NCBI GenBank assembly: GCA_017430965.1
Contig: JAFRLX010000116.1
Location: 1 to 47,363, forward strand
Direction: 5' to 3'
Origin: Clostridia bacterium
GTDB taxonomy: Bacteria; Bacillota; Clostridia; Oscillospirales; Acutalibacteraceae
Length of the DNA stretch: 47,363 nt
Each line of letters starts with the position of its first letter. Within the stretch, counting starts at the first letter, position 1. This document shows, in pieces, positions 30,850 through 47,155 of this stretch. The notes below the pieces were generated by a model. That model saw nothing but the letters and a program-made list of their open reading frames with translations, did no database searches and was not told the origin of the DNA. The position numbers were made by a program, and so were the translations under genes.

Positions 30850-31096
30850 ATACAGGAAAGGTCTGTGCAGGGCACAGCGCCGAAGGCGTAACACGCTCAG
30901 GAAAGGCAGTTGGCACGGAAAGCTTGAAGCCGTTGAAAAGCGGCCGTTAAGCGGGTTTACGGATGCCGGTACTGCCGCAAGACTGTTTGCTGACAACCCC
31001 CCGGAGAATTCCATTGATTTGGGTGCCGAAGGTGCAAACAGGTCGCGGTGTTACCCGCGCTGCCTGCTAATCTCTCAGGCAAAAGGACGGGGGAGA
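30850..31096 (+). promoter_or_regulatory. Glycine riboswitch
   Basis: The downstream aptamer (about 30995-31095) has every hallmark: CCCCCGGAGAATT closing against GGACGGGGG (P1), the core GTGCCGAAGGTGCAAA, a P3 hairpin (CGCGG/CCGCG near 31044-31058) and TCTCTCAGGCAAAAGGAC. A further core-like segment, CGCCGAAGGCGTAA with CTCAGGAAAGGCA, lies at about 30878-30920. This looks like a first aptamer that is divergent or reduced to a ghost aptamer, since its P3 stem is very short. The riboswitch precedes an alanine/glycine symporter gene, and two terminators follow the aptamer. The boundary at 30850 is approximate. Confidence 0.87.
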
Positions 31097-31148
31097 AAAA
31101 ACAGCCGTACTGTTTTTTATTGGTCAGCAAGTCTTGCTGACTTTTTTT
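31096..31148 (+). terminator. Two consecutive intrinsic terminators of the glycine riboswitch
   Basis: The first is AAAAAACAG-CCGTA-CTGTTTTTT (31096-31118). The second is GTCAGCAA-GTC-TTGCTGAC plus seven T (31123-31148). The first has only A-T pairs apart from its last G-C pairs; the second is the stronger. Both lie between the aptamer and the symporter ribosome-binding site. Confidence 0.8.
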
Positions 31149-31188
31149 GTTGCACACACTTCAAATACACGCTTTGGAGGAAGCAACT

Positions 31189-32709
31189 ATGTGGGGAAAC
31201 ATCATTTCCGTTATTGAAAAAGTGAACGATACCCTCAACGGCATTGTGTGGGGGTGGCCGGTCATTATCTTGATTTTGGGCACCGGCATTTTGCTGAGTG
31301 TGCGCACCGGCTTTTTGCAACTAAGGCATTTCGGAGAGTCGCTCAACACAACGATTGTGCCGACTCTGAAAGGGCTTGGTAAGAAAAAGGCGAAGGACAG
31401 CCGCCTGCAGTCCGTTTCGCAGTTTGAGGCGTTTGCCACCGCCATCTCCGGCACGGTTGGTACCGGTAACATTATCGGCGTGGTTTCGGCAATTCTTACC
31501 GGCGGTCCCGGCGCCGTGTTCTGGATGTGGATTTCCGCTTTCTTCGGCATGGTTACCAATTACAGCGAAAATGTTCTCGGTCTCTATTACCGCAAAAAGG
31601 ATGAAAAGGGCAACCTTTCCGGCGGTTCTTTCTATTACATTGCTTACGGCTTAAAGTGGAAGTGGCTTGCCTACCTTGCCGCGATTTTCTGCATGTTTGC
31701 CGCCATCGGCATGAGCGGTGTGCAGACCAACAAAATCTCCGGCACGCTTGCCGAGGCTTTTTCCAGAGCAACCGCTTTGCAAAATTCCGATACCGTGAAG
31801 CTCATTGTCGGCATTGTGGTGGCAGTTGTGACCGCTGTGGTGATTATCGGCGGCATCAAGCGCATCGGCAGAGTGGCATCCCTCCTGGTGCCGTTTATGT
31901 CACTGCTGTTTATTGTGCTGGCACTCATTGCTATTTTTATGAACATCAAAAACATTCCGACTGCGTTTTCTTTGATTTTTACAAAGGCGTTTAATTTCAA
32001 AGCGGCAGGCGGCGGCATTCTCGGCTACTCCTTTGCACAGGTGATTAAAAAGGGTATGGCAAGAGGCGTGTTCTCCAATGAAGCAGGCTTGGGTTCTTCC
32101 GTTATTGCCCACTCGGCTTCCGAAACCAGAGAGCCTGTCAAGCAGGGTCTGTGGGGTGTGTTTGAGGTGTTCTTTGATTCCTTCATCATCTGCACGCTGA
32201 CAGCGTTGATGTTCTTAACCACCTTTGATTTAAACACTCTTTCGGCAGATAAAGAGGACAGCGTGATGTCCATGACCATGTTCTCTACTTCGTTTGGCGG
32301 TGTCGGCACGGCGCTGTTCTCCGTCATTTTGCCCCTGTTCGCCTTCACCACGGTGATTGCCTGGTCTTACTACGGCGAAAAGGCGGTGGATTTCTGCTTC
32401 GGTTGGGTCAAAAGCGAAAAGCGCAAGTACATTGTCGGTGCCTTTAAGGTGATTTATGTGCTGTTGATTGCGCTTTCTTCCACCATTCACAGCGATTTGA
32501 TTTGGGCGATTGATGACACCTTCAACGGGTTGATGGCAGTGCCCAACCTCATTTGCCTGATTGCTCTGAGCGGCTTGGTGGTCAAGATTACCAAAAACTA
32601 TTTTGCGCGCAAAAAGGGAAGCGATGTGGAGCCGATGCTCTCGGCGTATCCCGAAATGAACAAAGAGTTTATTGAGGATATTCACACTGAAAATGCAGAA
32701 ATGCAGTAA
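31189..32709 (+). CDS. Alanine/glycine:cation symporter (AGCS family)
   Basis: 506 residues from ATG 31189 (GGAGG eight bases upstream); the frame is open back to 31147, inside the terminator. It has about ten to eleven membrane helices. TGFLQLRHFGESL, SAISGTVGTGNIIGVVSAI (residues ~95-115), MARGVFSNEAGLGSS and AFTTVIAWSYYGEKA are the AGCS signatures. It imports alanine and/or glycine with Na+ or H+. The glycine riboswitch in front argues that glycine is a substrate. Monocistronic, closed by a strong terminator. Confidence 0.93.
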   Translation: MWGNIISVIEKVNDTLNGIVWGWPVIILILGTGILLSVRTGFLQLRHFGESLNTTIVPTLKGLGKKKAKDSRLQSVSQFEAFATAISGTVGTGNIIGVVSAILTGGPGAVFWMWISAFFGMVTNYSENVLGLYYRKKDEKGNLSGGSFYYIAYGLKWKWLAYLAAIFCMFAAIGMSGVQTNKISGTLAEAFSRATALQNSDTVKLIVGIVVAVVTAVVIIGGIKRIGRVASLLVPFMSLLFIVLALIAIFMNIKNIPTAFSLIFTKAFNFKAAGGGILGYSFAQVIKKGMARGVFSNEAGLGSSVIAHSASETREPVKQGLWGVFEVFFDSFIICTLTALMFLTTFDLNTLSADKEDSVMSMTMFSTSFGGVGTALFSVILPLFAFTTVIAWSYYGEKAVDFCFGWVKSEKRKYIVGAFKVIYVLLIALSSTIHSDLIWAIDDTFNGLMAVPNLICLIALSGLVVKITKNYFARKKGSDVEPMLSAYPEMNKEFIEDIHTENAEMQ

Positions 32710-35041: not shown

Positions 35042-35138
35042 CCGCGTGTGCCGTGCGGCAGTGCGGATGTTTTCACTGCCTTGCCGAATATATATAAAAT
35101 CTGTGCACCATATTGAGGATATTTAGGTACTTTTTACA

Positions 35139-35167
35139 TTGTGATTTTTGCTTAAATATAGTATGAT
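35139..35167 (+). promoter_or_regulatory. Promoter of the purine operon leader
   Basis: TTGTGA, 17-base spacer, TATGAT. An overlapping alternative is TTTACA (35133), 18 bases, TATAGT (35157). Either gives a start site at about 35169-35174. Confidence 0.55.
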
Positions 35168-35173
35168 ATTAGT

Positions 35174-35338
35174 ATCATCGGTAAGGGGGAACAACTGCCA
35201 ATGCACTTGTCACGGTTTTCTGAAAAAAACATAGCGGCAACCGCGGCAAACTGCGCCTTAACCGGGGTGAGTGCGCAACACTGCGCAAATTGGAAATAAA
35301 CGCCTTATTCTCAGCGGAGAATAAGGCTCTCTTTTTTT
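35174..35338 (+). ncRNA. Structured leader RNA of the purine operon, identity unknown
   Basis: About 165 bases ending in an intrinsic terminator. By eye it folds into an outer stem GGTAAGG (35180-35186)/CCTTATT (35303-35309), a 9 x 8 internal loop, CCAAT/ATTGG (35198-35202/35289-35293), GCACT/AGTGC (35203-35207/35270-35274), CAC/GTG and GGTT/AACC, capped by a loop with GCGG-CAA-CCGC. The outer stem uses the same bases as the terminator's 5' arm, so the two exclude each other, as in a riboswitch or attenuator. It does not match the guanine/adenine, ZTP, PRPP or THF riboswitch consensus as I know them. A 6S-RNA-like molecule, which has been reported near purine genes in some bacteria, is another possibility. 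Confidence 0.42.
35302..35338 (+). terminator. Terminator in the purine operon leader
   Basis: GCCTTATTCTC, loop AGCG, GAGAATAAGGC, then TCTC and seven T. It lies 80 bases before purE. Confidence 0.88.
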
Positions 35339-35395
35339 GGCAATACAACCGGTGCACGCAAAAAGAAACAAGGTTCATACACTGATTGTATTGCC
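35339..35395 (+). promoter_or_regulatory. Perfect 10-bp stem with 37-base loop in the purE 5' region
   Basis: GGCAATACAA (35339-35348) and TTGTATTGCC (35386-35395). The right arm ends about ten bases before the AGGAAAGGGGAAG ribosome-binding region. The dyad could be an operator or an mRNA element; no known motif is recognised. Confidence 0.5.
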
Positions 35396-35418: not shown

Positions 35419-35913
35419 ATGAAAAAAACAGCCATTATTATGGGAAGTGACAGCGATTTAAAGGTGGTCGAAAAGGGGATTGCGGTCCTGGAAGAGTTCG
35501 GTGTGCCGTATGAAGTGCATGTTTTTTCGGCGCACCGCACGCCGGCACAGCTGCAAGAGTTTGTCAAAAGCGCTGAGGAAAATGATTTCGGCGTAATCAT
35601 TGCGGCGGCAGGTATGGCGGCGCACTTGGCGGGCGCCGTGGCGGCGGCAACGATTTTGCCGGTGATTGGCATTCCGATAAAATCCGCCTGCTTTGAGGGC
35701 ATGGATGCCCTGCTCTCTACGGTGATGATGCCGCCGGGGATTCCCGTGGCAACCGTGGGGGTTGACGGTGCCAAAAACGCCGCGCTGCTGGCGCTTGAAA
35801 TCCTGGCGCCGGGCGATGCGCAGCTGGCGCAAAAGCTCAAACAGCACCGCGCAGCGGCTGCCGAAGCCGTGCTCGAAAAAAACGCTGCTATCGAAGAAAA
35901 GTTTAATCACTAA
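35419..35913 (+). CDS. purE: N5-carboxyaminoimidazole ribonucleotide mutase / AIR carboxylase catalytic subunit
   Basis: 164 residues from ATG 35419. IIMGSDSDLKVVEKG binds the phosphate, VFSAHRTPAQL carries the active-site histidine, and AAGMAAHLAGAVAA, EGMDALLSTVMMP and GIPVATVGVDGAKNAALLA complete the PurE fold. It makes CAIR. A class I PurE needs PurK for N5-CAIR, and no purK is in the window. First gene of the operon, preceded by a leader with a terminator. Confidence 0.93.
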   Translation: MKKTAIIMGSDSDLKVVEKGIAVLEEFGVPYEVHVFSAHRTPAQLQEFVKSAEENDFGVIIAAAGMAAHLAGAVAAATILPVIGIPIKSACFEGMDALLSTVMMPPGIPVATVGVDGAKNAALLALEILAPGDAQLAQKLKQHRAAAAEAVLEKNAAIEEKFNH

Positions 35914-35927
35914 TGGGGGAAATAGAG

Positions 35928-36638
35928 ATGGAAAAGAAAGAATTACTGTATGAAGGTAAAGCCAAAAAGGTGTGGAGCACGGAGGATGAAACCCTCTGCA
36001 TTGTCGACTATAAAGACGATGCAACCGCTTTTAACGGCTTAAAAAAAGGCACCATTCAGGGCAAGGGCGCGATTAACAACCGCGTTTCCAACTTTATGAT
36101 GCAGGTGCTCGAAAAAGAGGGAGTCCCCACACACTTTGTGGAAGAACTCTCCGAAAGGGAAACGCTGGTCAAAAAAGTGAGCATTGTGCCACTGGAAGTG
36201 ATTATCCGCAACATTTCCGCCGGTTCCTTTGCCAAGAATTACGGCGTGGAAGAAGGCATTGTGTTTGAAGAACCGACGATTGAATTTTCTTACAAAAACG
36301 ATGATTTGGGCGACCCGCTGATTAACGCCTACCACGCACGCGCTTTGAAGCTGGCGACAAAAGAGGAGATAGAAACCATCAAGGCGATGGCGTTCAAAAC
36401 CAATGAGGTGATGAAAGCCTTTTTCAAAAAGCTGAACATTGATTTGGTCGACTTCAAGCTGGAGTTCGGCAAAACGGCGGACGGCAGCCTGGTGCTCGCC
36501 GATGAAATTTCGCCCGATACCTGCCGCTTCTGGGACAGCACCACTCACGAGAAGTTGGACAAGGACCGCTTCCGCAGAGATATGGGGAATGTGGAAGGCG
36601 CGTATCAGGAAATGATGAAGCGCATTTTGGGAGAATAA
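35928..36638 (+). CDS. purC: Phosphoribosylaminoimidazole-succinocarboxamide synthase (SAICAR synthetase)
   Basis: 236 residues from ATG 35928 (GGGGGA upstream); an ATG at 35913 overlaps the purE stop and lacks spacing. YEGKAKKVW, VDYKDDATAF, VPLEVIIRNISAGSF, DEISPDTCRFWD and DKDRFRRDMG are diagnostic. It joins aspartate to CAIR with ATP. It is 14 bases from purE. Confidence 0.95.
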   Translation: MEKKELLYEGKAKKVWSTEDETLCIVDYKDDATAFNGLKKGTIQGKGAINNRVSNFMMQVLEKEGVPTHFVEELSERETLVKKVSIVPLEVIIRNISAGSFAKNYGVEEGIVFEEPTIEFSYKNDDLGDPLINAYHARALKLATKEEIETIKAMAFKTNEVMKAFFKKLNIDLVDFKLEFGKTADGSLVLADEISPDTCRFWDSTTHEKLDKDRFRRDMGNVEGAYQEMMKRILGE

Positions 36639-36691
36639 TGTTCACCGCGTGAACATGATTCTGTTTTCAGTGTTCAGTTTTCAGATTTCAG
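36638..36691. repeat. Hairpin plus heptamer repeats after purC
   Basis: ATGTTCAC-CGC-GTGAACAT (36638-36656) is followed by GATTCTG and four 7-bp units: TTTTCAG, TGTTCAG, TTTTCAG, ATTTCAG (36664-36691). Confidence 0.7.
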
Positions 36692-36698
36692 TTGGAGG

Positions 36699-36830
36699 AT
36701 GGGCGCTGCCCATACCCGATTGTAAGGCAGTGCACAGCACTGCACGATATATTTGCTAAAGCAAATGCAATATGCCGCAAGCGGCGCGATATATTGCTTT
36801 GGGCAATGCGATATGTTTGTTATGGCAAAC
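36699..36830. repeat. Array of six small hairpins between purC and purF
   Basis: ATGGGC-GCT-GCCCAT (36699), GCAGTGC-ACA-GCACTGC (36727), ATTTGCT-AA-AGCAAAT (36751), GCCGC-AA-GCGGC (36774), ATTGC-TTTGG-GCAAT (36793) and GTTTG-TTATGG-CAAAC (36815). Most are separated by GCGATAT or a close variant (ACCCGAT, CACGATAT, GCAATAT). The period is about 19-29 bases. No gene is present in this gap. Confidence 0.75.
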
Positions 36831-36860
36831 GATAATTATATAGGATAAGGGAGCACATAT

Positions 36861-38285
36861 ATGGGAGGATTTTTTGGCGCGGTAGCGCAAAGTGATGTGA
36901 TTTTAGATGTGTTTTTCGGCACGGATTATCACTCACACCTGGGAACGCGCAGAGGCGGCATGGCTGCTGTCGATGCAGAGGTCGGTTTACAAAGAGACAT
37001 TCACAACATTGAGAATTCGCCGTTTCGCACCAAGTTTGCGGGCATTGCGGACGAAATGAAGGGCAATGCCGCCATCGGCATTATCAGCGACTATGACCCG
37101 CAGCCGCTGCTCATTCGCTCGGCGCTCGGCGCCTATGCGATTGCATTCATCGGTGTGATTAATAACAGCGCAGAGCTCATTGAAAAGTATTTGTCTTCGC
37201 CGGGCGGCTTTTTCAATTCCATGACCGGCGGCAATATCAATAACACGGAGCTTGTCGCTGCGCTCATTAACCAAAAAGAGAGTTTTACCGAGGGTATTCG
37301 CTTTGCGCAAGAGGCGATTGACGGCACCTGTTCCATTCTCATTTTAACCAACGAGGGCAGCTTGATTGCCGCGCGCGACAAAGTCGGCAGGCTGCCGATT
37401 ATTTTAGGTAAGTGCGAGGGCGCGCACTGTGTGAGCTTCGAGTCCTTTGTTATCGGCAAATTGGGTTTTGAGAAGCTCAGAGAGCTCGGCCCCGCCGAGA
37501 TTGTGGAGCTTTCTGCCGAAGCGGTAAAAGTTTTGCATGCGCCGCAGCAGAAAAAGCGCATCTGCTCCTTCCTCTGGTCGTACTACGGCTACCCGACCTC
37601 GACCTACGAAGGCATTAATGTGGAAATGATGCGTTACAAAAACGGTGAAATTATGGCGCGCACCGATGAAGCACTCGGCAATGCCACCAATGTCGATTAT
37701 GTCGGCGGGGTGCCGGATTCGGGTACACCGCATGCGATTGGTTATGCCAACGCTTCGCACCTGCCGTTTGCGCGCGCTTTTATCAAATACACCCCGACCT
37801 GGTCGCGCTCGTTTATGCCGACCCGGCAGGAGGAGCGCAACAAGATTGCCAAGATGAAGCAAATACCCGTGCACGATTTAATTCAGGACAAAAACCTGCT
37901 TTTTGTCGATGACTCGATTGTGCGCGGCACACAGCTCAAAGAAACGGTTGATTTCTTATATGAAAACGGTGCGGCAAGTGTACACATGCGCTCTGCCTGC
38001 CCGCCGATTATGTTCGGCTGCAAGTACCTCAATTTCTCGCGCTCGACTTCGGATATGGACTTAATTGCCCGCAAGGTGATTGTCGAGTTAGAGGGAGAAA
38101 AAGGGTTTGACTATATCGAAGAATACAGTGACGGCACCACAGAGCGCGGCAAGGCGTTGCGCAAAGTTATTTGCGAAAAACTGCACCTGGCTTCGCTCGA
38201 ATTCCAATCGCTGCAGGGCATTGTGGAAGCAATTGGTATGGATGAGTGCGAATTGTGCACCTATTGTTGGAACGGGAAAGAATAG
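36861..38285 (+). CDS. purF: Amidophosphoribosyltransferase-like protein without the N-terminal catalytic cysteine
   Basis: 474 residues. The C-terminal phosphoribosyltransferase domain is intact: GVPDSGTPHAIGYA, RSFMPTRQEERNKI and the PRPP loop VDDSIVRGT (349-357). CELCTYC near the C-terminus resembles the Fe-S/Cys tail of Bacillus-type PurF. The N-terminal part starts MGGFFGAVAQSDVILDVFFG, where ordinary PurF has a processed N-terminal cysteine (C-G-(I/V)-F-G). The usual glutamine-site motifs are also changed (SDYDPQP, VINNSAE). It should use PRPP, but glutamine hydrolysis is doubtful; free ammonia or a partner amidotransferase may supply nitrogen. The gene symbol marks homology, not proven function. 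Confidence 0.8.
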   Translation: MGGFFGAVAQSDVILDVFFGTDYHSHLGTRRGGMAAVDAEVGLQRDIHNIENSPFRTKFAGIADEMKGNAAIGIISDYDPQPLLIRSALGAYAIAFIGVINNSAELIEKYLSSPGGFFNSMTGGNINNTELVAALINQKESFTEGIRFAQEAIDGTCSILILTNEGSLIAARDKVGRLPIILGKCEGAHCVSFESFVIGKLGFEKLRELGPAEIVELSAEAVKVLHAPQQKKRICSFLWSYYGYPTSTYEGINVEMMRYKNGEIMARTDEALGNATNVDYVGGVPDSGTPHAIGYANASHLPFARAFIKYTPTWSRSFMPTRQEERNKIAKMKQIPVHDLIQDKNLLFVDDSIVRGTQLKETVDFLYENGAASVHMRSACPPIMFGCKYLNFSRSTSDMDLIARKVIVELEGEKGFDYIEEYSDGTTERGKALRKVICEKLHLASLEFQSLQGIVEAIGMDECELCTYCWNGKE

Positions 38286-38317
38286 TGTGAAAGTAAAACT
38301 TTAAGTGGAGAAAACAT

Positions 38318-39355
38318 ATGAACCGAAATTCAAAATCAGAGGCATACGCACAGGCGGGCGTAGACATCACTGCCGGCTACACCGCGGTGGAATTGATGAA
38401 AGAGCACATCGCAAAAACCCTCACAAGCGGTGTGTGCTCCGATATCGGCGGCTTCGGCGGGCTGTTTGAACTGCCCGCGGGGTATGAGCAGCCGGTCCTG
38501 GTCAGCGGCACCGACGGTGTCGGCACCAAGCTCAAATTGGCGTTTTTGACGGACAAACACGATACCATCGGTATTGACTGCGTGGCAATGTGTGTCAACG
38601 ACATTATCTGCGCCGGTGCAAAGCCGCTGTTTTTCTTGGATTACATTGCCTGCGGCAAAAACTACCCCGAGAAAATTGCTAAGATTGTCAGCGGCGTTGC
38701 CGAAGGCTGTGTGCAAAGCGGTGCGGCGCTCATCGGCGGCGAGACCGCGGAAATGCCGGGCTTTTACCCGCCGGAGGAATATGACTTGGCGGGCTTTAGT
38801 GTCGGCATTGTCGAGAAGAAAAAGATTATTGATAACAGCACCATGCAAGTAGGCGACAAGCTCATTGCGCTGCCTTCGAGTGGTGTGCATTCCAACGGCT
38901 TTTCCCTCGTGCGCAAGGTCTTTGATGTCGCGCATTGCGACTTAAAGGCGCCGGTGGAAGCCTTGGGCGGTGCGAGCCTGGGTGAAACCCTGCTCACTCC
39001 CACAAAAATCTATGTTAAACCCGTATTGGCACTGCTCGAAGCAGTGGAAGTCAAAGCGATTTCTCACATCACGGGCGGCGGCTTTTATGAAAACATTCCG
39101 CGCAGCCTGCCCGCCGGGAAGTGCGCACGCATTCAAAAAGAGGCGCTCAAAGTATTGCCGATATTTGATTACATTGCAGGGGTCGGCAACATTTCACAAA
39201 GAGATATGTTTAACACCTTTAATATGGGTGTGGGCATGGTCGTGTGTGTCAGTGCCGCGGATGAAGCCGAAGCGCTTGCGGTGCTCAGAGCCAACGGCGA
39301 AGAGGCTTACACCATCGGCGAAATTGCAGCCGGCGAGGGGATAGAGTTATGTTAA
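38318..39355 (+). CDS. purM: Phosphoribosylformylglycinamidine cyclo-ligase (AIR synthetase)
   Basis: 345 residues. [52 protein letters not shown] and [19 protein letters not shown] identify PurM. It closes FGAM to AIR with ATP. AGTGGAGAAAAC precedes the ATG. It overlaps purN by 7 bases. Confidence 0.95.
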
Positions 39356-39960
39356 AGACAAGAATAGCCGTGCTCGTCTCCGGCGGCGGCACCAATTTAC
39401 AGGCGCTCATTGATGCCCAGGCGCGCGGGGAAAACCCCTATGGGGAAATCGCACTGGTCATTGCCGACAAGCCCGAGGCGTATGCGCTCGAGCGCGCAAA
39501 AAAAGCGGGCATTCCCACCGCGGTGGTGAGCAAAAAAGAGAGCGCTTCGCAAGAAGCATTTGAAGCGGCTATGCGCTGCAAACTCGCAGAATACGCAATT
39601 GATTTAATCGTGCTTGCGGGCTTTCTGTGCATTTTAAGTGAGGACTTTACAAAGGCATATCCCGAGCGCATCATCAATGTGCACCCCTCTTTAATCCCTG
39701 CCTTTTGCGGCAAGGGTTACTACGGACTGCGCGTGCACCAAGCGGCGCTTGATTACGGAGTCAAAGTGACGGGCGCGACCGTGCACTTTGTCAATGAAAT
39801 ACCGGACGGCGGCAGGATTATTTTGCAAAAGGCTGTCGCCATTGAGCCGGACGATACACCGCAAACACTGCAAAAGCGGGTGATGGAGCTTGCCGAGTGG
39901 CAGATTTTGCCGCAAGCCGTTGCCCTTGTCAGTCAAAAAATACAAGGAGAAAAGCGATGA
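39349..39960 (+). CDS. purN: Phosphoribosylglycinamide formyltransferase (10-formyl-THF dependent)
   Basis: 203 residues. [16 protein letters not shown] binds the phosphate, and [19 protein letters not shown] and [18 protein letters not shown] carry the Asn-His-Asp catalytic set. It formylates GAR. It overlaps purM upstream and shares ATGA with the IMP cyclohydrolase gene downstream. Confidence 0.94.
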
Positions 39961-40673
39961 ATATGTTTGAAACGAAAACCATGGGCGAACGCATCAAAGG
40001 CAACCCCTATGTCGGCAGAGGTATCGCAGTCGGCATGAGTGCGGACGGCAGCAAAGCCGCGATTGCCTACTTCATTATGGGTAGGAGCGAGAGCTCGCGC
40101 AACCGCATGTTTTTGGAAAAAGGCGATGAAATTGTCATCGAGCCGATTGACCTTTCCAAAGTGGGCGACCCCTCTTTAATCATTTACTCCCCGCTGCGGG
40201 TATTAGAGGGCGCGACCATTGTCACCAACGGCGACCAGACCGACACGGTGTATGATTTCTTAAAAGCGGGCAAATCTTTCTCGCAGGCGCTTGCGACCAG
40301 AGAGTTTGAGCCGGATGCACCCAATTTCACCCCGCGCATCAGTGCGCTGCTGCATTTAGGGGAAAGCTTTTCTTACGATATGTCCATTTTAAAGAGTGCC
40401 GATGAAAAGGGCAGCGCCTGTGTGCGCGAGTACTTCGAGTACCCCGCTTTGCCGGGTGTCGGGCACTTTATTCACACCTATGTGACCGATGGTAACCCCA
40501 TTCCTTCTTTTGTCGGGGAGCCGGAGCGCATCCGCATTCCCGACAGCCCCGAGGCCTTCTTAAAGGATATCTGGGAAAACCTTGACGAAGCGAACAAGGT
40601 TGCCATTGCCGTGCGCTATATCGATTTAAAAAGCGGCACTTACGAGCAGAAAGTCATTAATAAATATGTTTGA
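39957..40673 (+). CDS. IMP cyclohydrolase of the PurO-like type
   Basis: 238 residues from ATG 39957, which overlaps the purN stop (GGAG upstream); the frame is open further left only as a shadow of purN. NPYVGRGIAVGMSADGSKAA, AYFIMGRSESSRNR and TNGDQTDTVYDFL are the motifs of the IMP_cyclohyd family, first described from archaeal PurO. It would close FAICAR to IMP, the last step, and it replaces the cyclohydrolase half of ordinary bifunctional PurH. The neighbouring gene supplies the other half. Confidence 0.88.
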   Translation: MNMFETKTMGERIKGNPYVGRGIAVGMSADGSKAAIAYFIMGRSESSRNRMFLEKGDEIVIEPIDLSKVGDPSLIIYSPLRVLEGATIVTNGDQTDTVYDFLKAGKSFSQALATREFEPDAPNFTPRISALLHLGESFSYDMSILKSADEKGSACVREYFEYPALPGVGHFIHTYVTDGNPIPSFVGEPERIRIPDSPEAFLKDIWENLDEANKVAIAVRYIDLKSGTYEQKVINKYV

Positions 40674-40679
40674 TTACCA

Positions 40680-40700
40680 TTAACTCATCACTCAACACTC
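40680..40700. repeat. Three heptamer repeats between IMP cyclohydrolase and AICAR transformylase genes
   Basis: TTAACTC, ATCACTC, AACACTC. The purH-like ribosome-binding site AGGGGGT follows. Confidence 0.5.
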
Positions 40701-40718
40701 AAAACAGGGGGTACTGAA

Positions 40719-41903
40719 ATGAAAGAATTTGAATTAAAGTACGGCTGCAATCCGAACCAAAAGCCGGCGAAAATCTATATGGAAAACGGCGCAGAATTGC
40801 CGCTGCAAATCTTATCGGGCAGACCGGGCTACATCAATTTTTTAGATGCGTTTAACGCCTGGCAGTTGGTCAAAGAAATTAAAGAGGAAACGGGACTGCC
40901 CGCGGCAACCTCCTTTAAGCATGTCAGCCCGACCTCGGCGGCAGTGGGCACACCTCTGCCCGAGAGCTTGAAAAAAGCCTGCTTTGTCGATGACATTGAG
41001 GGCTTGGACAATTCGCCGCTTGCCTGCGCCTATGCCAGAGCCAGAGGCACGGACAGAATGAGCTCCTTCGGCGACTTCATAGCGCTCAGCGACTGCTGCG
41101 ATGTGACAACCGCAACGCTCATTAAGCGCGAGGTTTCCGATGGCATTATTGCCCCCGCCTATGAACCGGAGGCGCTCGCAATTTTAAAGAGCAAGAGAAA
41201 GGGCAATTACAACATCATTCAGATTGACCCCGACTATGTACCTGCCAAGCAGGAAAAGAAGCAGGTATTCGGCATCACTTTTGAGCAGGGCAGAAACGAT
41301 TACAGAGCGCACAGCGCGGACTTTACGCATATTGTCACAAAGAACAAGGACATTCCGGATGCGGCAAAGCGCGACCTCGCGATTGCCCTCATTACCCTCA
41401 AATACACCCAGTCCAACTCCGTGTGCTATGTCAAAGACGGGCAGGCAATCGGTGTCGGCGCCGGGCAGCAGTCGCGCATTCACTGCACCAGGCTTGCAGG
41501 CTCCAAGGCGGATTTCTGGCACCTGCGCCAGCACGAAAAAGTGCTCGGGCTTCCCTTTAAAGCCGACATCGGCAGACCGGAGAAAGACAACGCCATCGAC
41601 TGCTACCTCGGTGAAACGCCGGAGGATGTGCTTGCAGACGGCAACTGGGAACAATTCTTTACTGTAAAGCCTGAACCCTTTACAAAAGAGGAACAGCGCG
41701 CGTATTTGGACACATTGAGCGGTGTGTGCCTGGGTTCGGATGCTTTCTTCCCCTTCGGCGACAATATTGAGAGAGCGCGGCGCAGCGGTGTCAGCTACAT
41801 TGCGCAGCCCGGCGGCTCCATTCGCGATGACAATGTCATTGCCGCCTGCGACAAGTACGGCATGGCGATGGTGTTCACCGGCATGCGTTTATTCCACCAT
41901 TAA
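40719..41903 (+). CDS. purH: Stand-alone AICAR transformylase (C-terminal half of PurH)
   Basis: 394 residues. The start [19 protein letters not shown], the catalytic Lys-His in ATSFKHVSP, and [13 protein letters not shown] and PGGSIRDD are those of the AICARFT domain. The N-terminal IMP cyclohydrolase (MGS-like) domain of bifunctional PurH is absent and not truncated away, because the gene has its own start and ribosome-binding site. It transfers formyl from 10-formyl-THF to AICAR. Confidence 0.93.
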
Positions 41904-41933
41904 TATAAAAGGGTAAAAAAGCAAAAGCCCTTA

Positions 41934-42046
41934 TTGGTTTTAGAGGCCTCTTTGCGTAGATACTGCAGAAAGTTCGCAAAGGAATACACAAAGTATGCCG
42001 TTTGCTCCTTTCTTTGTCTGAACACAAATATGCTCTCTAAAACCGA
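41934..42046. other. Branched inverted-repeat element between purH and purD
   Basis: GGTTTTAGAG (41936-41945) pairs perfectly with CTCTAAAACC (42035-42044), and two further outer pairs are possible. Inside lie three hairpins: CTTTGCG/CGCAAAG (41950-41956/41975-41981), GAATAC/GTATGC with one mismatch (41982-41987/41993-41998) and TTTGT/ACAAA (42013-42017/42024-42028). This multi-branched plan suggests a folded RNA or a small non-coding mobile repeat. A 62-codon minus-strand frame across it is not believed to be a gene. Confidence 0.45.
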
Positions 42047-42086
42047 GTTTATGTAAAAAAGATAAGTGGTTGAAGAACGTGGAAAC

Positions 42087-42165
42087 AATCAGCGCTTTCA
42101 CCTTTTAACCCTAAAAAAAGAATTTCTTTAAAAATCAGCGCTTGTAAAGGCAATAAACTTTACAA
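42087..42165 (+). repeat. 11-bp direct repeat and hairpin in front of purD
   Basis: AATCAGCGCTT occurs at 42087-42097 and 42133-42143. The second copy runs into the hairpin TTGTAAAG (42142-42149)/CTTTACAA (42158-42165). The purD ribosome-binding site follows. Confidence 0.5.
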
Positions 42166-42181
42166 CAGCTGTGGAGGCTTT

Positions 42182-43453
42182 ATGAAGATTATGGTCATTG
42201 GAGGCGGCGGCAGAGAGCACGCCGTTATCCGAAAAATAGCAGAAAATAAAAACGTAGAAACCATCTTCGCCTTGCCCGGCAACGCCGGCATGCGTGAACT
42301 TGCGCAGTGCGTGGACATCGCGGCGACAGATATTGAAGCGATAGTCGCCTGGGCGAAAGAACACCCGATTGATTTTGCGGTCGTCACACCCGATGACCCG
42401 CTCGCGCTCGGCTGTGTGGATGCACTTGAAAACATCGGCATTCCCTGCTTCGGTCCGACCGCCGCGGCGGCACAGATTGAAGCGAGCAAGGTCTTTGCCA
42501 AAGATTTGATGCAAAAGTACGGCATCCCGACTGCCGCCTACGCGGTGTTTGAGGAGTTGCCCGCAGCGCTCGATTACGTGCGCACGGCGCCGTATCCGCT
42601 GGTCATTAAGGCAGACGGTTTGGCGCTGGGCAAGGGTGTGAGCATTGTTAGCGATGCCGCGGCAGCCGAGGAAGCGCTGCGCGCGGCGATGGAAGAAAAG
42701 GTTTTCGGCAACAGCGGCAGCCGCGTGGTCATTGAAGAGTACTTGGAAGGCCCCGAAGTGAGCGTTTTAAGTTTCACCGACGGCGAGACAATAGTGCCGA
42801 TGGTTTCTTCGATGGACCACAAGCGTGCGTATGATGGTGACGAAGGCCCCAACACCGGCGGCATGGGTACGATTGCCCCGAACCCTTACTATACCGCAGA
42901 AATTGCCGCACAGTGCATGGAAGAAATTTTCCTGCCGACCATTCAAGCGATGCAAAAAGAGGGCAGACCCTTCCAAGGCTGCCTGTATTTCGGCTTGATG
43001 TTAACCAAGGACGGTCCCAAGGTTATTGAATACAACTGCCGTTTCGGCGACCCCGAAACGCAGGTGGTGCTGCCGCTGCTCGAAAGCGATTTGCTTGAAA
43101 TTATGATGGCAGTCAGAAACAAAACACTCGCCGAGGCGGATGTGCGCTTCTCTCAAAAGAGCGCGTGCTGCGTGGTTAAAGCAAGTAAAGGTTACCCGCG
43201 CGCCTATGAAAAAGGCTTTGCCATTACCTGCGGGGAGCTGCCCCAAAACAGCTTTGTCTTTTATGCCGGTGCGAAACTCGACAGCGCAGGCAACCTGGTC
43301 ACCGCCGGCGGCAGAGTGCTCGGAGTGACAGCCGTTGCCGCCGATTTAAAGAGCGCGGTTGAGCTTGCCTATCAGGCGGCAGAGCAGGTGCATTTTGACA
43401 ATGAGACAAAGCGCAACGACATCGGGCAAAGAGCCCTGAAAATTCTCGGCTAA
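42182..43453 (+). CDS. purD: Phosphoribosylamine-glycine ligase (GAR synthetase)
   Basis: 423 residues. MKIMVIGGGGREHAVIRKIA, the ATP-grasp core LVIKADGLALGKGVSIV, SMDHKRAYDGDEGPNTGGMG and VIEYNCRFGDPETQ are diagnostic. It joins glycine to phosphoribosylamine. GTGGAGG precedes the ATG by six bases. Confidence 0.96.
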   Translation: MKIMVIGGGGREHAVIRKIAENKNVETIFALPGNAGMRELAQCVDIAATDIEAIVAWAKEHPIDFAVVTPDDPLALGCVDALENIGIPCFGPTAAAAQIEASKVFAKDLMQKYGIPTAAYAVFEELPAALDYVRTAPYPLVIKADGLALGKGVSIVSDAAAAEEALRAAMEEKVFGNSGSRVVIEEYLEGPEVSVLSFTDGETIVPMVSSMDHKRAYDGDEGPNTGGMGTIAPNPYYTAEIAAQCMEEIFLPTIQAMQKEGRPFQGCLYFGLMLTKDGPKVIEYNCRFGDPETQVVLPLLESDLLEIMMAVRNKTLAEADVRFSQKSACCVVKASKGYPRAYEKGFAITCGELPQNSFVFYAGAKLDSAGNLVTAGGRVLGVTAVAADLKSAVELAYQAAEQVHFDNETKRNDIGQRALKILG

Positions 43454-43465
43454 ACGGAGAAGAGT

Positions 43466-46400
43466 ATGGTTTACAGAGTTTATGTAGAAAAGAAAGAAGC
43501 GCACCGCGGTGAAGCGGCGCTGCTTTTAAAGGATTTACAGAATGTGCTGGGCATTCGCGGTTTGCGCAGTCTGCGCCTTGTCAACCGCTACGATGTGGAG
43601 CATATTGATAAGGAACTGTTTGAAACGGCGGTCAAAAATGTGTTTTCCGAACCGCAGCTTGACGATGTGTATGAGGCGCTTGACCCTAAGCAGTGCGATG
43701 CGGCGTTTGTCAGCGAGTATCTGCCCGGGCAGTTTGACCAGCGCGCGGATTCCGCGGCGCAGTGCATTGAGCTTATTTCCTGCAAGCCGCGCCCGACAGT
43801 GCGCTCGGCGAAGGTGTATTTGCTCTATGGGGAATTGAGCGAAGAAGATGTGCAGGCAATCAAGCACTACCTCATCAACCCGGTTGAGAGCCGCGAAGCG
43901 GTGTGGGAGACTTACGAGACCTTAGAGCAGCCGGCAGACATTCCGGAGGCGGTGGAAACGCTCACCGGCTTTACCGCGCTCGATGATGAGGCACTGGTTG
44001 CCCTTATCGGGCAATACGGTTTTGCGATGGATGAGGGCGATATCCGCTTTTGCAGGGAGTACTTCCGCAGCGAGCAGCGCGACCCGACCATTACAGAGCT
44101 GCGCATGATTGACACCTATTGGTCGGACCACTGCCGCCACACCACCTTTTTAACGACGATTGACAGCGTGCGTTTTGCAGATGCCGATTTGCAAAGCGCT
44201 TATGAAGACTACCTTGCCGCGCGCAAAGAGCTCGGCAGGGAAAAGCCGATGAACTTAATGGATATCGGCACCATCGGCGCCAAACTCCTTAAACAGCGCG
44301 GGTTGCTGCAAAAGCTCGACGAGAGCGAGGAAATCAACGCCTGCACGGTGAAAATGGAAGTTGATGTCGAGGGAGAGCCGCAGGAGTGGCTGCTGCTGTT
44401 TAAAAACGAAACCCACAACCACCCGACCGAGATTGAACCCTTCGGCGGTGCGGCGACCTGTATCGGCGGCGCGATTCGCGACCCGCTTTCGGGCAGAGCC
44501 TATGTCTATGGCGCGATGCGCGTGACCGGTGCGGCAGACCCGACAGCACCGTTTAGTGAAACGATTGCGGGCAAGCTGCCCCAAAGAAAGATTGTGACAA
44601 CCGCGGCGCAGGGCTATTCTTCCTACGGCAACCAAATCGGTTTGGCAACCGGGCAGGTGGATGAAATTTACCACCCCGCTTATGTGGCGAAGCGCCTGGA
44701 AATCGGCGCGGTGGTCGGTGCGGTGCCCGCAGAGAATGTGCGCCGCGAAGTGCCGGCACCCGGTGATGTGGTGATACTGCTCGGCGGCAGAACCGGCAGA
44801 GACGGCTGCGGCGGTGCAACCGGTTCTTCCAAAAAGCACAGCTTAACCTCGCTGGAGACCTGCGGGGCAGAGGTGCAAAAGGGTAACGCACCCGAAGAGA
44901 GAAAACTGCAAAGGCTGTTCCGCAACAAGGAAGCCTCGCTGCTCATTAAGCGCTGCAACGACTTCGGCGCGGGCGGTGTTTCGGTCGCGATTGGCGAATT
45001 GGCGGACGGCTTGGAAATTGATTTAAACAAAGTACCCAAAAAATATGAGGGGCTTGACGGCACCGAGCTTGCCATCAGTGAAAGCCAGGAGAGAATGGCA
45101 GTGGTGGTTGAAGCCAAGGATGCCGCGCGCTTCAAGGCGCTCGCAGAAGAGGAGAACCTCGAAGCGACCACGGTCGCTGTGGTGAGCGAAGCGCCCCGCT
45201 TAGTGATGAACTGGAACGGTAAGGCGATAGTCGATGTCAGTCGCGACTTCTTAAATTCCAACGGTGCACCCAAGCACATTGACATTGAAACCCCTGCAGC
45301 ACAGCCTGTACAAAAAGAGATTCCTGCCGATTTTAAAGCGGGCATGCAGGCGTTGGCGGGTGATTTAAACATCTGCTCCAAGCGCGGGCTTTCCGAGCGC
45401 TTTGACTCGACCATCGGCGCGCGCACGGTGCTCATGCCCTTCGGCGGCAAGTACCAGCAAACGCCCGAGCAGGCAATGGTGCAAACCGTTATCGGCGGTG
45501 AAAAGGCGAGCAACACCTGCTCGCTGATGGCGTGGGGCTATAACCCGGAGATTATGGAGAAAGACCCCTACCGCGGTGCCTATCTGGCAGTTGTCGAGAG
45601 CCTTTGTAAACTGGTGGCGGTCGGCGGCGATACGGCTGATGCGTATTTGACCTTCCAAGAGTATTTCCCTTCGCCCGGCAAAGACCCGAAACGCTGGGGA
45701 CAGCCCTTGGCGGCGCTGCTCGGCGCGCTCAAAGCGCAGACCGATTTCGGCGTGGCAGCCATCGGCGGTAAGGATTCAATGAGCGGCACTTTTGAAGATA
45801 TTGATGTGCCGCCCACCCTCGTTTCCTTCGCGGTGACCACACAAGATAAGTCTGAGATTGTCTCTGCCGCTTTCAAAGAGGCGGGCAGTCACTTAACGCT
45901 GATTGCACCGCAGTATAACGGCATTGTGCCGCAGGCAGAGAGCCTGAAAGCAGTATTTAAAACGATAAAAGAACTCGGCAGGCAAAAGAAGCTGCGCGCT
46001 GTCTACGCTTTAGGCAGGGGCGGCATTGCCGAAGCGCTGCTTAAGCAAAGCCTCGGCAACCGCATCGGTGTGAGCCTTGCGGACAGTTTGCTTTTAGAAC
46101 AGCTCTTTGATTACGGCTACGGTGCGTTCCTCGTTGAGAGCGAGAGCGCTTTGGACTGCGGCACGCCTGTCGGTACCACGACTGCTGATTTTGCGCTCAA
46201 ATACAAAGGTCAAGCGCTTGATTTGAACACTTTGCAGGCAGTGTATGAAAACAAGTTAGAGAGCGTTTATGCCTGCAACATTCCCACCGAAAACACACAC
46301 ATAGAAGTGCCGGCTTTCAGCGCTGCTTCTTACCCGCAGCCGCGCTTCCATACCGCAAAACCCAAGGTGCTCATTCCGGTGTTCCCGGGCACAAACTGCG

Positions 46401-47155
46401 AGTTTGATTCGCGCCAGGCAGTTGAGCGCGCGGGAGCCCAAGCGGAGATTATGGTCATCAACAACCTCTCGGCAGCCGGTGTTGCGCAAAGCGTGCAGCG
46501 TTTCGCAGAGGGGTTGGCAGAGAGCCAAATCCTCTTTATTCCCGGCGGCTTTTCGGGCGGTGATGAGCCCGAAGGCTCCGGCAAGTTTATTACGGCGTTT
46601 TTGAAAAACCCCGCCATTTTCGAGCAAATTGAAAACTTACTCGAAAACCGCGATGGTTTGATTTTGGGCATTTGCAACGGCTTCCAGGCGCTCATTAAGT
46701 TAGGGTTGGTGCCTTTCGGAAAGATTGTGCAAACCGATGCCGCCTGCCCGACACTGAGCTTTAACGACATCGGGCGCCACCAGTCGCGCATTGTGCATAC
46801 CGCAGTTGCTTCCAACAAGTCGCCGTGGCTGATGGCAACCAAGCCCGGCGAAGTGTACAGCGTGCCGATTTCCCACGGCGAAGGCAAGTTTATCTGCTCG
46901 CCCGAGCTCTACGCGCGCCTGGCGGCAAACGGGCAAATTGCGACCCAATATGCCGATGCCGGCGGTAAGCCGACCATGGACATTCGCTTTAACCCCAATG
47001 GCTCTTACTGCGCGGTAGAGGGCATTACCTCGCCCGATGGCAGAGTTTTCGGCAAAATGGGGCACAGCGAGCGCTATCACCCCGGGCTTTACCAAAATGT
47101 GCCGGGCGATTACGATATGAAGCTGTTTGAAAGTGCGGTCAAGTATTACAAATAA
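43466..47155 (+). CDS. purL: Phosphoribosylformylglycinamidine synthase, large single-chain type
   Basis: 1229 residues. The N-terminal PurS-like domain (about 1-150) and FGAM synthetase core (TYWSDHCRHTTFLTTI, KNETHNHPTEIEPFGGAATC, GGKDSMSGTF) are followed by a class I glutaminase domain with PVFPGTNCEFDS and catalytic C1070 in LGICNGFQ, and the histidine/glutamate in SHGEGKF. It makes FGAM from FGAR, ATP and glutamine. This is the fused form, so separate purS and purQ genes are not expected. Last gene of the operon in view. AACGGAGAAGAGT precedes the ATG. Confidence 0.96.
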   Translation: MVYRVYVEKKEAHRGEAALLLKDLQNVLGIRGLRSLRLVNRYDVEHIDKELFETAVKNVFSEPQLDDVYEALDPKQCDAAFVSEYLPGQFDQRADSAAQCIELISCKPRPTVRSAKVYLLYGELSEEDVQAIKHYLINPVESREAVWETYETLEQPADIPEAVETLTGFTALDDEALVALIGQYGFAMDEGDIRFCREYFRSEQRDPTITELRMIDTYWSDHCRHTTFLTTIDSVRFADADLQSAYEDYLAARKELGREKPMNLMDIGTIGAKLLKQRGLLQKLDESEEINACTVKMEVDVEGEPQEWLLLFKNETHNHPTEIEPFGGAATCIGGAIRDPLSGRAYVYGAMRVTGAADPTAPFSETIAGKLPQRKIVTTAAQGYSSYGNQIGLATGQVDEIYHPAYVAKRLEIGAVVGAVPAENVRREVPAPGDVVILLGGRTGRDGCGGATGSSKKHSLTSLETCGAEVQKGNAPEERKLQRLFRNKEASLLIKRCNDFGAGGVSVAIGELADGLEIDLNKVPKKYEGLDGTELAISESQERMAVVVEAKDAARFKALAEEENLEATTVAVVSEAPRLVMNWNGKAIVDVSRDFLNSNGAPKHIDIETPAAQPVQKEIPADFKAGMQALAGDLNICSKRGLSERFDSTIGARTVLMPFGGKYQQTPEQAMVQTVIGGEKASNTCSLMAWGYNPEIMEKDPYRGAYLAVVESLCKLVAVGGDTADAYLTFQEYFPSPGKDPKRWGQPLAALLGALKAQTDFGVAAIGGKDSMSGTFEDIDVPPTLVSFAVTTQDKSEIVSAAFKEAGSHLTLIAPQYNGIVPQAESLKAVFKTIKELGRQKKLRAVYALGRGGIAEALLKQSLGNRIGVSLADSLLLEQLFDYGYGAFLVESESALDCGTPVGTTTADFALKYKGQALDLNTLQAVYENKLESVYACNIPTENTHIEVPAFSAASYPQPRFHTAKPKVLIPVFPGTNCEFDSRQAVERAGAQAEIMVINNLSAAGVAQSVQRFAEGLAESQILFIPGGFSGGDEPEGSGKFITAFLKNPAIFEQIENLLENRDGLILGICNGFQALIKLGLVPFGKIVQTDAACPTLSFNDIGRHQSRIVHTAVASNKSPWLMATKPGEVYSVPISHGEGKFICSPELYARLAANGQIATQYADAGGKPTMDIRFNPNGSYCAVEGITSPDGRVFGKMGHSERYHPGLYQNVPGDYDMKLFESAVKYYK

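What the first reader, a model, noticed from the sequence alone, without database searches (positions are those of the whole stretch)
35174..35338. Orphan purine-operon leader with mutually exclusive stem and terminator
The outer stem of the leader fold uses the same CCTTATT (35303-35309) that builds the terminator 5' arm. Stable outer pairing would free purE transcription; loss of it would terminate. That is riboswitch or attenuator logic in front of nine purine genes, yet the known purine-related motifs I can recall do not fit. A new aptamer class or a 6S-RNA-like molecule are the main options.
Basis: partly seen in the sequence, partly recalled or inferred. Interest (0 to 1): 0.72.

Follow-up and report, generated by a model that had tools for sequence, protein, structure and literature searches.

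The report
Leader peptide gate before purine genes
In front of a bacterium's purine-making genes lies a tiny protein-coding stretch that ends right at a stop signal for RNA synthesis, so translating ribosomes probably decide whether the purine genes are read; related bacteria often carry the same layout with unrelated tiny proteins.

Summary
The finding is real but was misread. The ~165-nt purE leader shows no sign of an aptamer or 6S RNA. It holds a 32-codon ORF (35201-35299, AAGGGGG-N11-ATG) whose stop codon lies 2 nt before a strong intrinsic terminator (35302-35338). Two congeners keep the ORF (pN/pS 0.22-0.45, one in-frame 45-nt insertion); two more have the same layout with different peptides. 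By a strict rule such ORF-plus-terminator leaders precede purE in 25 of 70 ZTP-free leaders of the family (0.62 in shuffles) and 14 of 46 from other families of the order (0.53), in 0 of 36 and 0 of 22 leaders with a ZTP riboswitch, and before 0 of 28 other genes. With the start fixed, the first in-frame stop falls at the hairpin in 22 of 25 leaders; the other frames give 3 and 5. The "mutually exclusive stem" shows no covariation in three congeners, and 34 family leaders show no excess pairing with the terminator arm. Best explanation: a translation-dependent attenuator that works like E. coli pyrBI; a ribosome reaching the leader stop blocks the terminator. What it senses (polymerase speed set by purine nucleotides is my guess) is untested. 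I found no published purine example in six literature searches.

The parts
35139..35167 (+). promoter-like site TTGTGA-N17-TATGAT (9 of 12); an overlapping TTTACA-N18-TATAGT at 35133-35162 scores 10 of 12
   Evidence: consensus scan, 4 sites found in the region against 0.9 in shuffles; start of transcription near 35174 is inferred
35183..35189 (+). ribosome-binding site AAGGGGG of the leader ORF, 11 nt before the ATG
   Evidence: sequence; GGGGGA kept in G006 and G003. The spacing is long, so the strict automated rule misses this leader
35201..35299 (+). leader ORF, 32 codons, MHLSRFSEKNIAATAANCALTGVSAQHCANWK, stop TAA 35297-35299
   Evidence: pN/pS 0.28, 0.22 and 0.45 among G000, G006 and G003; in-frame 45-nt insertion in G003
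35273..35286 (+). small hairpin GCGCA-acac-TGCGC inside the ORF, possible pause hairpin (inference)
   Evidence: 5 of 5 pairs never vary in three congeners; invariance is no proof of structure
35302..35338 (+). intrinsic terminator: stem 35302-35312 with 35317-35327, T-run 35332-35338
   Evidence: 97% of stem cells paired in three congeners
35180..35186 (+).
   Evidence: not supported as a conserved switch
35419..35913 (+). purE, first gene of the operon
   Evidence: TIGR01162, 192.7 bits over cut-off 149.6
35913..47155 (+). rest of the operon: purC, PurF-like, purM, purN, PurO-type IMP cyclohydrolase, AICAR formyltransferase, purD, FGAM synthase (purL)
   Evidence: the PurF-like protein scores 159.6 against a cut-off of 350

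Best explanation
The purE leader is a translation-dependent transcription attenuator. A short ORF is translated from a ribosome site near the 5' end of the transcript, and its stop codon sits at the foot of an intrinsic terminator. If a ribosome is at or near that stop when RNA polymerase makes the terminator, it covers the 5' arm, the hairpin cannot form and polymerase reads into purE. If no ribosome follows closely, the terminator forms and a ~165-nt RNA is released. Shown by sequence comparison: the ORF, its placement at the terminator, its recurrence before purE in the order, the lack of peptide similarity between most genera, and its absence under the strict rule where a ZTP riboswitch is present. 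Inferred: that the ribosome blocks the terminator. Guessed: that the signal is the relative speed of polymerase and ribosome, low purine nucleotides slowing polymerase so that the ribosome catches up and switches the operon on, as low UTP does at pyrBI.
For: Strict ORF-terminator layout in 25 of 70 ZTP-free family leaders that have a terminator, shuffles mean 0.62, max 4; repeated in other families of the order, 14 of 46 against 0.53, max 3. Frame test: stop at the hairpin in frame 0 in 22 of 25, other frames 3 and 5; other families 13 of 18 against 0 and 3. 0 of 36 and 0 of 22 ZTP leaders (Fisher 6e-6 and 0.003). 0 of 28 other genes with an upstream terminator. 30 of 34 leader stops lie at most 5 nt from the hairpin, against 9 of 64 long ORFs, or 7 of 25 within the same range. 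In E. coli a terminator a few bp after a stop codon is almost fully repressed by the ribosome (PMC4824070, passages). In B. subtilis a ribosome near a leader's end, helped by a polymerase pause, prevents termination at tlrB (PMC6851288, passages).
Against: No measurement of translation, termination or regulation. Bacillota are classed as runaway transcription, polymerase ahead of ribosomes (PMC13323073, passages), and in E. coli terminators in the first 100 bp of a coding region work efficiently because coupling is not yet set up (PMC4824070), so a pause is needed that I did not show. 45 of 70 and 32 of 46 ZTP-free leaders with a terminator fail the strict rule, the window's own among them (ribosome site 11 nt from the ATG). 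ORF regions fold more stably than shuffles (mean z -1.15 in the family; -0.43 elsewhere) and short k-mers are enriched in the family, so some RNA feature inside the ORF is unexplained. Low pN/pS in two genera means that the peptide is not wholly free. The purine signal is untested.
Confidence: 0.72

Rival explanations
1. Ribosome-arrest leader: the nascent peptide stalls the ribosome in response to a small molecule (purine, folate, antibiotic), and the stalled ribosome sets the fate of the terminator, as in tnaC or tlrB.
For: Within the window's genus and one other the peptide is under constraint (pN/pS 0.22-0.45 and 0.31-0.36). tlrB is a precedent in Bacillota.
Against: Between genera 7 of 1468 peptide pairs reach z>=5; two of five leaders of the window's own genus have different peptides (G004, G005: z -0.1 to 3.6 against the rest). 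Several congeneric pairs have pN/pS 0.5-1.1.
Confidence: 0.12
2. An ordinary small-protein gene with its own terminator that happens to lie before purE.
For: Genuine coding signal in the genus; ORF, ribosome site and terminator make a complete gene.
Against: Recurs before purE over many families with unrelated peptides; not seen before 28 other genes with a terminator; the stop is closer to the hairpin than at ordinary gene ends; 0 of 58 ZTP leaders have it.
Confidence: 0.06
3. A riboswitch or protein-binding RNA, in which the ORF is incidental.
For: ORF regions fold better than shuffles; GGTGCG and CTGCGC each in 9 of 40 family ORFs against 1.3-1.4 expected; outer stem possible and favoured before the terminator is complete.
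Against: Frame test; k-mers not enriched in other families; no Rfam match in 40 leaders; no pairing excess with the terminator arm; no covariation.
Confidence: 0.08
4. A 6S RNA or 6S-like RNA.
Against: No RF00013 match in the leader at E up to 10; the genome has one 6S match, on contig C30.
Confidence: 0.02

Closest known systems
E. coli pyrBI (pyrL) attenuator; rph-pyrE attenuator (the latter recalled, no call)
   Same: A translated leader ORF at an intrinsic terminator before a nucleotide-biosynthesis operon; a ribosome close behind polymerase prevents termination (PMC5021804, PMC4824070, passages). In pyrE, as I recall, the upstream ORF ends a few bp before the terminator.
   Different: Purine operon, Bacillota, ORF mostly ends at the hairpin instead of running through it, peptide and operon unrelated. 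NTP dependence, pause sites and ribosome effect not tested.
B. subtilis tlrB (yxjB) leader
   Same: Leader peptide in Bacillota whose translation, with a NusG-dependent pause, prevents termination (PMC6851288, passages).
   Different: 9-residue conserved peptide with a tylosin-dependent arrest motif; here the peptide is not conserved between most genera and no inducer is known.
ZMP/ZTP riboswitch (RF01750)
   Same: Occupies the same place before purE, with a terminator, in 36 of 126 family loci by motif; 20 of the 36 were tested with Rfam and all 20 confirmed.
   Different: An aptamer; no match in 7 of 7 genomes of the window's genus; never together with the strict ORF layout.
Amino-acid leader-peptide attenuators (trp, his type)
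   Same: Short leader ORF, intrinsic terminator, biosynthetic operon; leader peptides replacing other sensors are reported for Firmicutes hisS (PMC2965389, passages).
   Different: No run of codons for one amino acid in the window ORF, and no excess pairing of the leader with the terminator 5' arm.

Membership tests
pyrBI-type translation-coupled attenuator (works like; membership not claimed) | translated leader ORF whose end lies at or in the terminator | tested here: met
   window ORF ends 2 nt before the hairpin; for relatives
pyrBI-type translation-coupled attenuator (works like; membership not claimed) | ribosome near the stop prevents termination | not testable with these tools
   needs reporter fusions or coupled in vitro transcription
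pyrBI-type translation-coupled attenuator (works like; membership not claimed) | response to the nucleotide made by the operon, through polymerase pausing | not testable with these tools
   operon content only
trp/his-type leader-peptide attenuator | run of regulatory codons in the leader ORF | tested here: not met
   read from the translated window ORF; pooled family peptides show no single dominant residue
trp/his-type leader-peptide attenuator | antiterminator that pairs with the terminator 5' arm | tested here: not met
   mean z +0.38 over 34 family leaders; the window's outer stem is a possible exception without covariation
ribosome-arrest leader (tnaC, tlrB) | conserved arrest motif in the peptide | tested here: inconclusive
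   no similarity between most genera, but constraint within some genera
6S RNA (RF00013) | match to the covariance model | tested here: not met
   own 6S elsewhere
ZMP/ZTP riboswitch (RF01750) | match to the covariance model | tested here: not met
   no match in the window or in the 7 genomes of the genus
other Rfam riboswitches (purine, PRPP and others) | match to a covariance model | tested here: not met
   4227 families, window leader and 40 relatives' loci

The most novel reading that the evidence does not exclude
A purine counterpart of pyrBI control, spread through several families of one order of Bacillota: the cell reads its purine nucleotide supply through how far RNA polymerase runs ahead of the first ribosome on a throw-away leader ORF, without aptamer, repressor or conserved peptide, and this device stands in for the ZTP riboswitch at purE. 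It would show functional transcription-translation coupling in a phylum classed as uncoupled.
Probability: 0.35. Interest if true: 0.85.

Novelty: new variant of a known kind. Interest (0 to 1): 0.62.

Why it matters
As I recall, purine synthesis in Bacillota is known to be controlled by repressors and riboswitches; six literature searches aimed at a translated leader for purine genes found none (in some only the top 15 of 506, 706 and 61 papers were listed). The layout explains purE leaders that match no Rfam family (0 of 40 loci). It offers a natural test of whether ribosomes and polymerase are coupled in a phylum classed as runaway. It also shows two control devices alternating at one operon (ZTP riboswitch or leader ORF), with the ORF's position kept and its peptide free to change.

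Tried and rejected
Rejected or not claimed. 6S RNA and other Rfam families. A family-wide antiterminator. A stem between ribosome site and ORF end: weak in the family (mean z -0.58, se 0.20; 11 of 35 below -1.5) and in other families (-0.44, se 0.28; 4 of 23), absent in the window (z +0.83). Shared k-mers: enriched in the family only. Cys-rich peptides: 5.6% in the ORF frame against 4.8% in the other frames, so mostly composition. Inverted repeat after the terminator: single copy in the own genome.

Rows left out and weak points of the counts. One search holds 126 loci: 125 genomes, less G020 and G063 (partial purE matches, not fetched), plus G003, G004, G005. 36 are ZTP-like; 90 are not, and 20 of these had no terminator call. 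Some of the 90 may be diverged ZTP riboswitches (L037 looks so by eye). The lenient rule gives 45 of 70 but also 7 of 36 ZTP leaders and a wrong start for G003, so I rely on the strict rule; ZTP leaders are expected to give only 0.33 and 0.17 by shuffles, so their zeros count by comparison with 25 of 70 and 14 of 46 (Fisher). The window's own leader fails the strict rule. The 34 ORFs were chosen with gap -12 to +16 and 12-60 codons, so their spread is bounded by choice; the comparison within the same range is the fair one. Long ORFs (window and loci L035-L131 over 2500 bases) are mechanical and include purE. In one search I examined 88 loci (86 outside the family); G042, G202 and G245 were not fetched; its lenient rule finds 23 loci in 11 other families. 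In one search I examined 28 loci of other orders, the best-scoring of 51 genomes with a match: 9 ZTP-like, 1 strict leader ORF, 1 with a weak ribosome site, 17 other; of 19 further named loci, L101 alone passed with a 14-codon ORF. One search printed the wrong flank for minus-strand loci; put right.

Full report
WHAT IS THERE. 35174-35338 is the leader of a purine operon: purE, purC, a PurF-like protein below the family cut-off, purM, purN, a PurO-type cyclohydrolase, AICAR formyltransferase, purD and FGAM synthase. Promoter-like sites overlap at 35133-35167 and a strong intrinsic terminator lies at 35302-35338. Rfam gives no match in the leader at gathering threshold and only chance-level ones at E up to 10.

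THE REPORTED SWITCH. In the whole leader the outer stem has probability 0.0 and costs 9.4 kcal/mol; before the terminator's 3' arm is made it is in the best fold. In the three congeners that align, 92.2% of the cells of the three stems pair, but there is no compensatory change, and two of seven outer pairs are lost in one sequence; three sequences are few. Over 34 family leaders the leader pairs with the terminator 5' arm no better than shuffles. I do not support a conserved mutually exclusive stem.

IS THE ORF REAL? In the genus, clear DNA similarity reaches G006 (89%) and G003 (77% over the first 117 of 186 bases). Both keep the ORF; G003 has an in-frame 45-nt insertion. pN/pS is 0.28, 0.22 and 0.45 for the three pairs. 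Congeners G004 and G005 have ORFs of 42 and 48 codons ending at a terminator in the same place with different peptides (z -0.1 to 3.6 against the others). Given its ATG, the window's ORF would end within 15 nt of the hairpin in 6.5% of shuffles, so the window alone is only suggestive.

RELATIVES. I collected 126 purE upstream regions of the family. 36 carry a ZTP riboswitch by a motif rule; Rfam confirmed 20 of the 20 that I tested. None of the 7 genomes of the window's genus has a ZTP match. Of the other 90, 70 have a terminator in the 320 nt before purE. A strict rule (ATG, ribosome-site match of 5 or more, 12-60 codons, stop -12 to +15 nt from the hairpin) is met by 25 of 70, against a mean of 0.62 and a maximum of 4 in 200 shuffles, and by 0 of 36 ZTP leaders. 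With site and ATG fixed, the first in-frame stop lies at the hairpin in 22 of 25 leaders, against 3 and 5 of 25 in the other frames. A second set of 86 loci from other families of the order repeats this: 14 of 46 against 0.53, ZTP leaders 0 of 22, frame test 13 of 18 against 0 and 3. Among 28 loci of other orders 1 meets the strict rule. Forty loci with the layout give no Rfam match.

WHY AN ATTENUATOR. Of 34 family leader ORFs (19-48 codons; chosen within -12 to +16 nt) 30 stops lie at most 5 nt from the hairpin; of 64 long ORFs with a downstream terminator 9 do, or 7 of 25 within the same range (Fisher 3e-6). Of 28 other genes with an upstream terminator none has such a leader ORF. Peptides of different genera are mostly unrelated (7 of 1468 pairs at z>=5). 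In E. coli, a terminator several bp after a stop codon is almost fully repressed, moving the stop from 28 to 5 bp lowers termination from about 90% to under 10%, and beyond 27 nt there is no repression (PMC4824070, passages). pyrBI uses such coupling over a leader peptide (PMC5021804, passages). At B. subtilis tlrB a ribosome near the leader's end, with a polymerase pause, interferes with the terminator (PMC6851288, passages). Translation of a leader peptide also raises B. subtilis rplJL expression, there presumably by blocking Rho (PMC4538822, passages).

DOUBTS. Nothing here measures translation, termination or regulation. Bacillota are classed as runaway transcribers (PMC13323073, passages), and early terminators escape coupling in E. 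coli, so a pause or a very early ribosome is needed and was not shown. 45 of 70 and 32 of 46 ZTP-free leaders with a terminator fail the strict rule, the window's own among them. ORF regions fold better than shuffles (mean z -1.15, se 0.22; -0.43, se 0.21), which the model does not explain unless as pause hairpins. pN/pS is low in two genera and near 0.35-1.1 in others; for one pair it could not be computed. The purine signal is a guess from operon content and from the alternation with ZTP riboswitches. [quoted passage not shown] its main text does not hold the words purine or purE (PMC2965389, passages). Six searches aimed at leader ORFs of purine genes found none; the library lacks most subscription papers.

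VERDICT.

Noticed in passing
window 30991-31100 (+): Glycine riboswitch aptamer (RF00504, 60 bits) just before a sodium:alanine symporter family gene at 31147-32709.
   Followed up: no
window 39897-40673 and 40719-41903 (+): Instead of a bifunctional PurH the operon has a separate PurO-type IMP cyclohydrolase (PF07826, 195.8 bits) and an AICAR formyltransferase (NF005492, 678 bits).
   Followed up: partly
window 36861-38285 (+): The purF-place protein scores only 159.6 bits against the TIGR01134 cut-off of 350 and has only a GATase_7 match in Pfam: a diverged PurF or a different amidotransferase.
   Followed up: no
window 35339-35348 and 35386-35395 (+): Perfect 10-bp inverted repeat GGCAATACAA/TTGTATTGCC between terminator and purE, not in G006 or G003; single copy in the own genome.
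   Followed up: partly
L200 (G175): Read by eye: an ATG-started leader ORF seems to run through the whole terminator and past it, a layout closer still to E. coli pyrL.
   Followed up: no
L146 and L160 (G169, G013): Congeners whose purE leader seems to have lost the ORF: promoter, then almost at once a hairpin.
   Followed up: no
G021:C58: The 6S RNA lies about 3 kb from purE here, and on the same contig as purE in several other genomes (for example G073, G128, G163).
   Followed up: no
L329, L341, L343, L345 (other orders): By eye, purE leaders that look like guanine/adenine riboswitches; not tested with Rfam.
   Followed up: no
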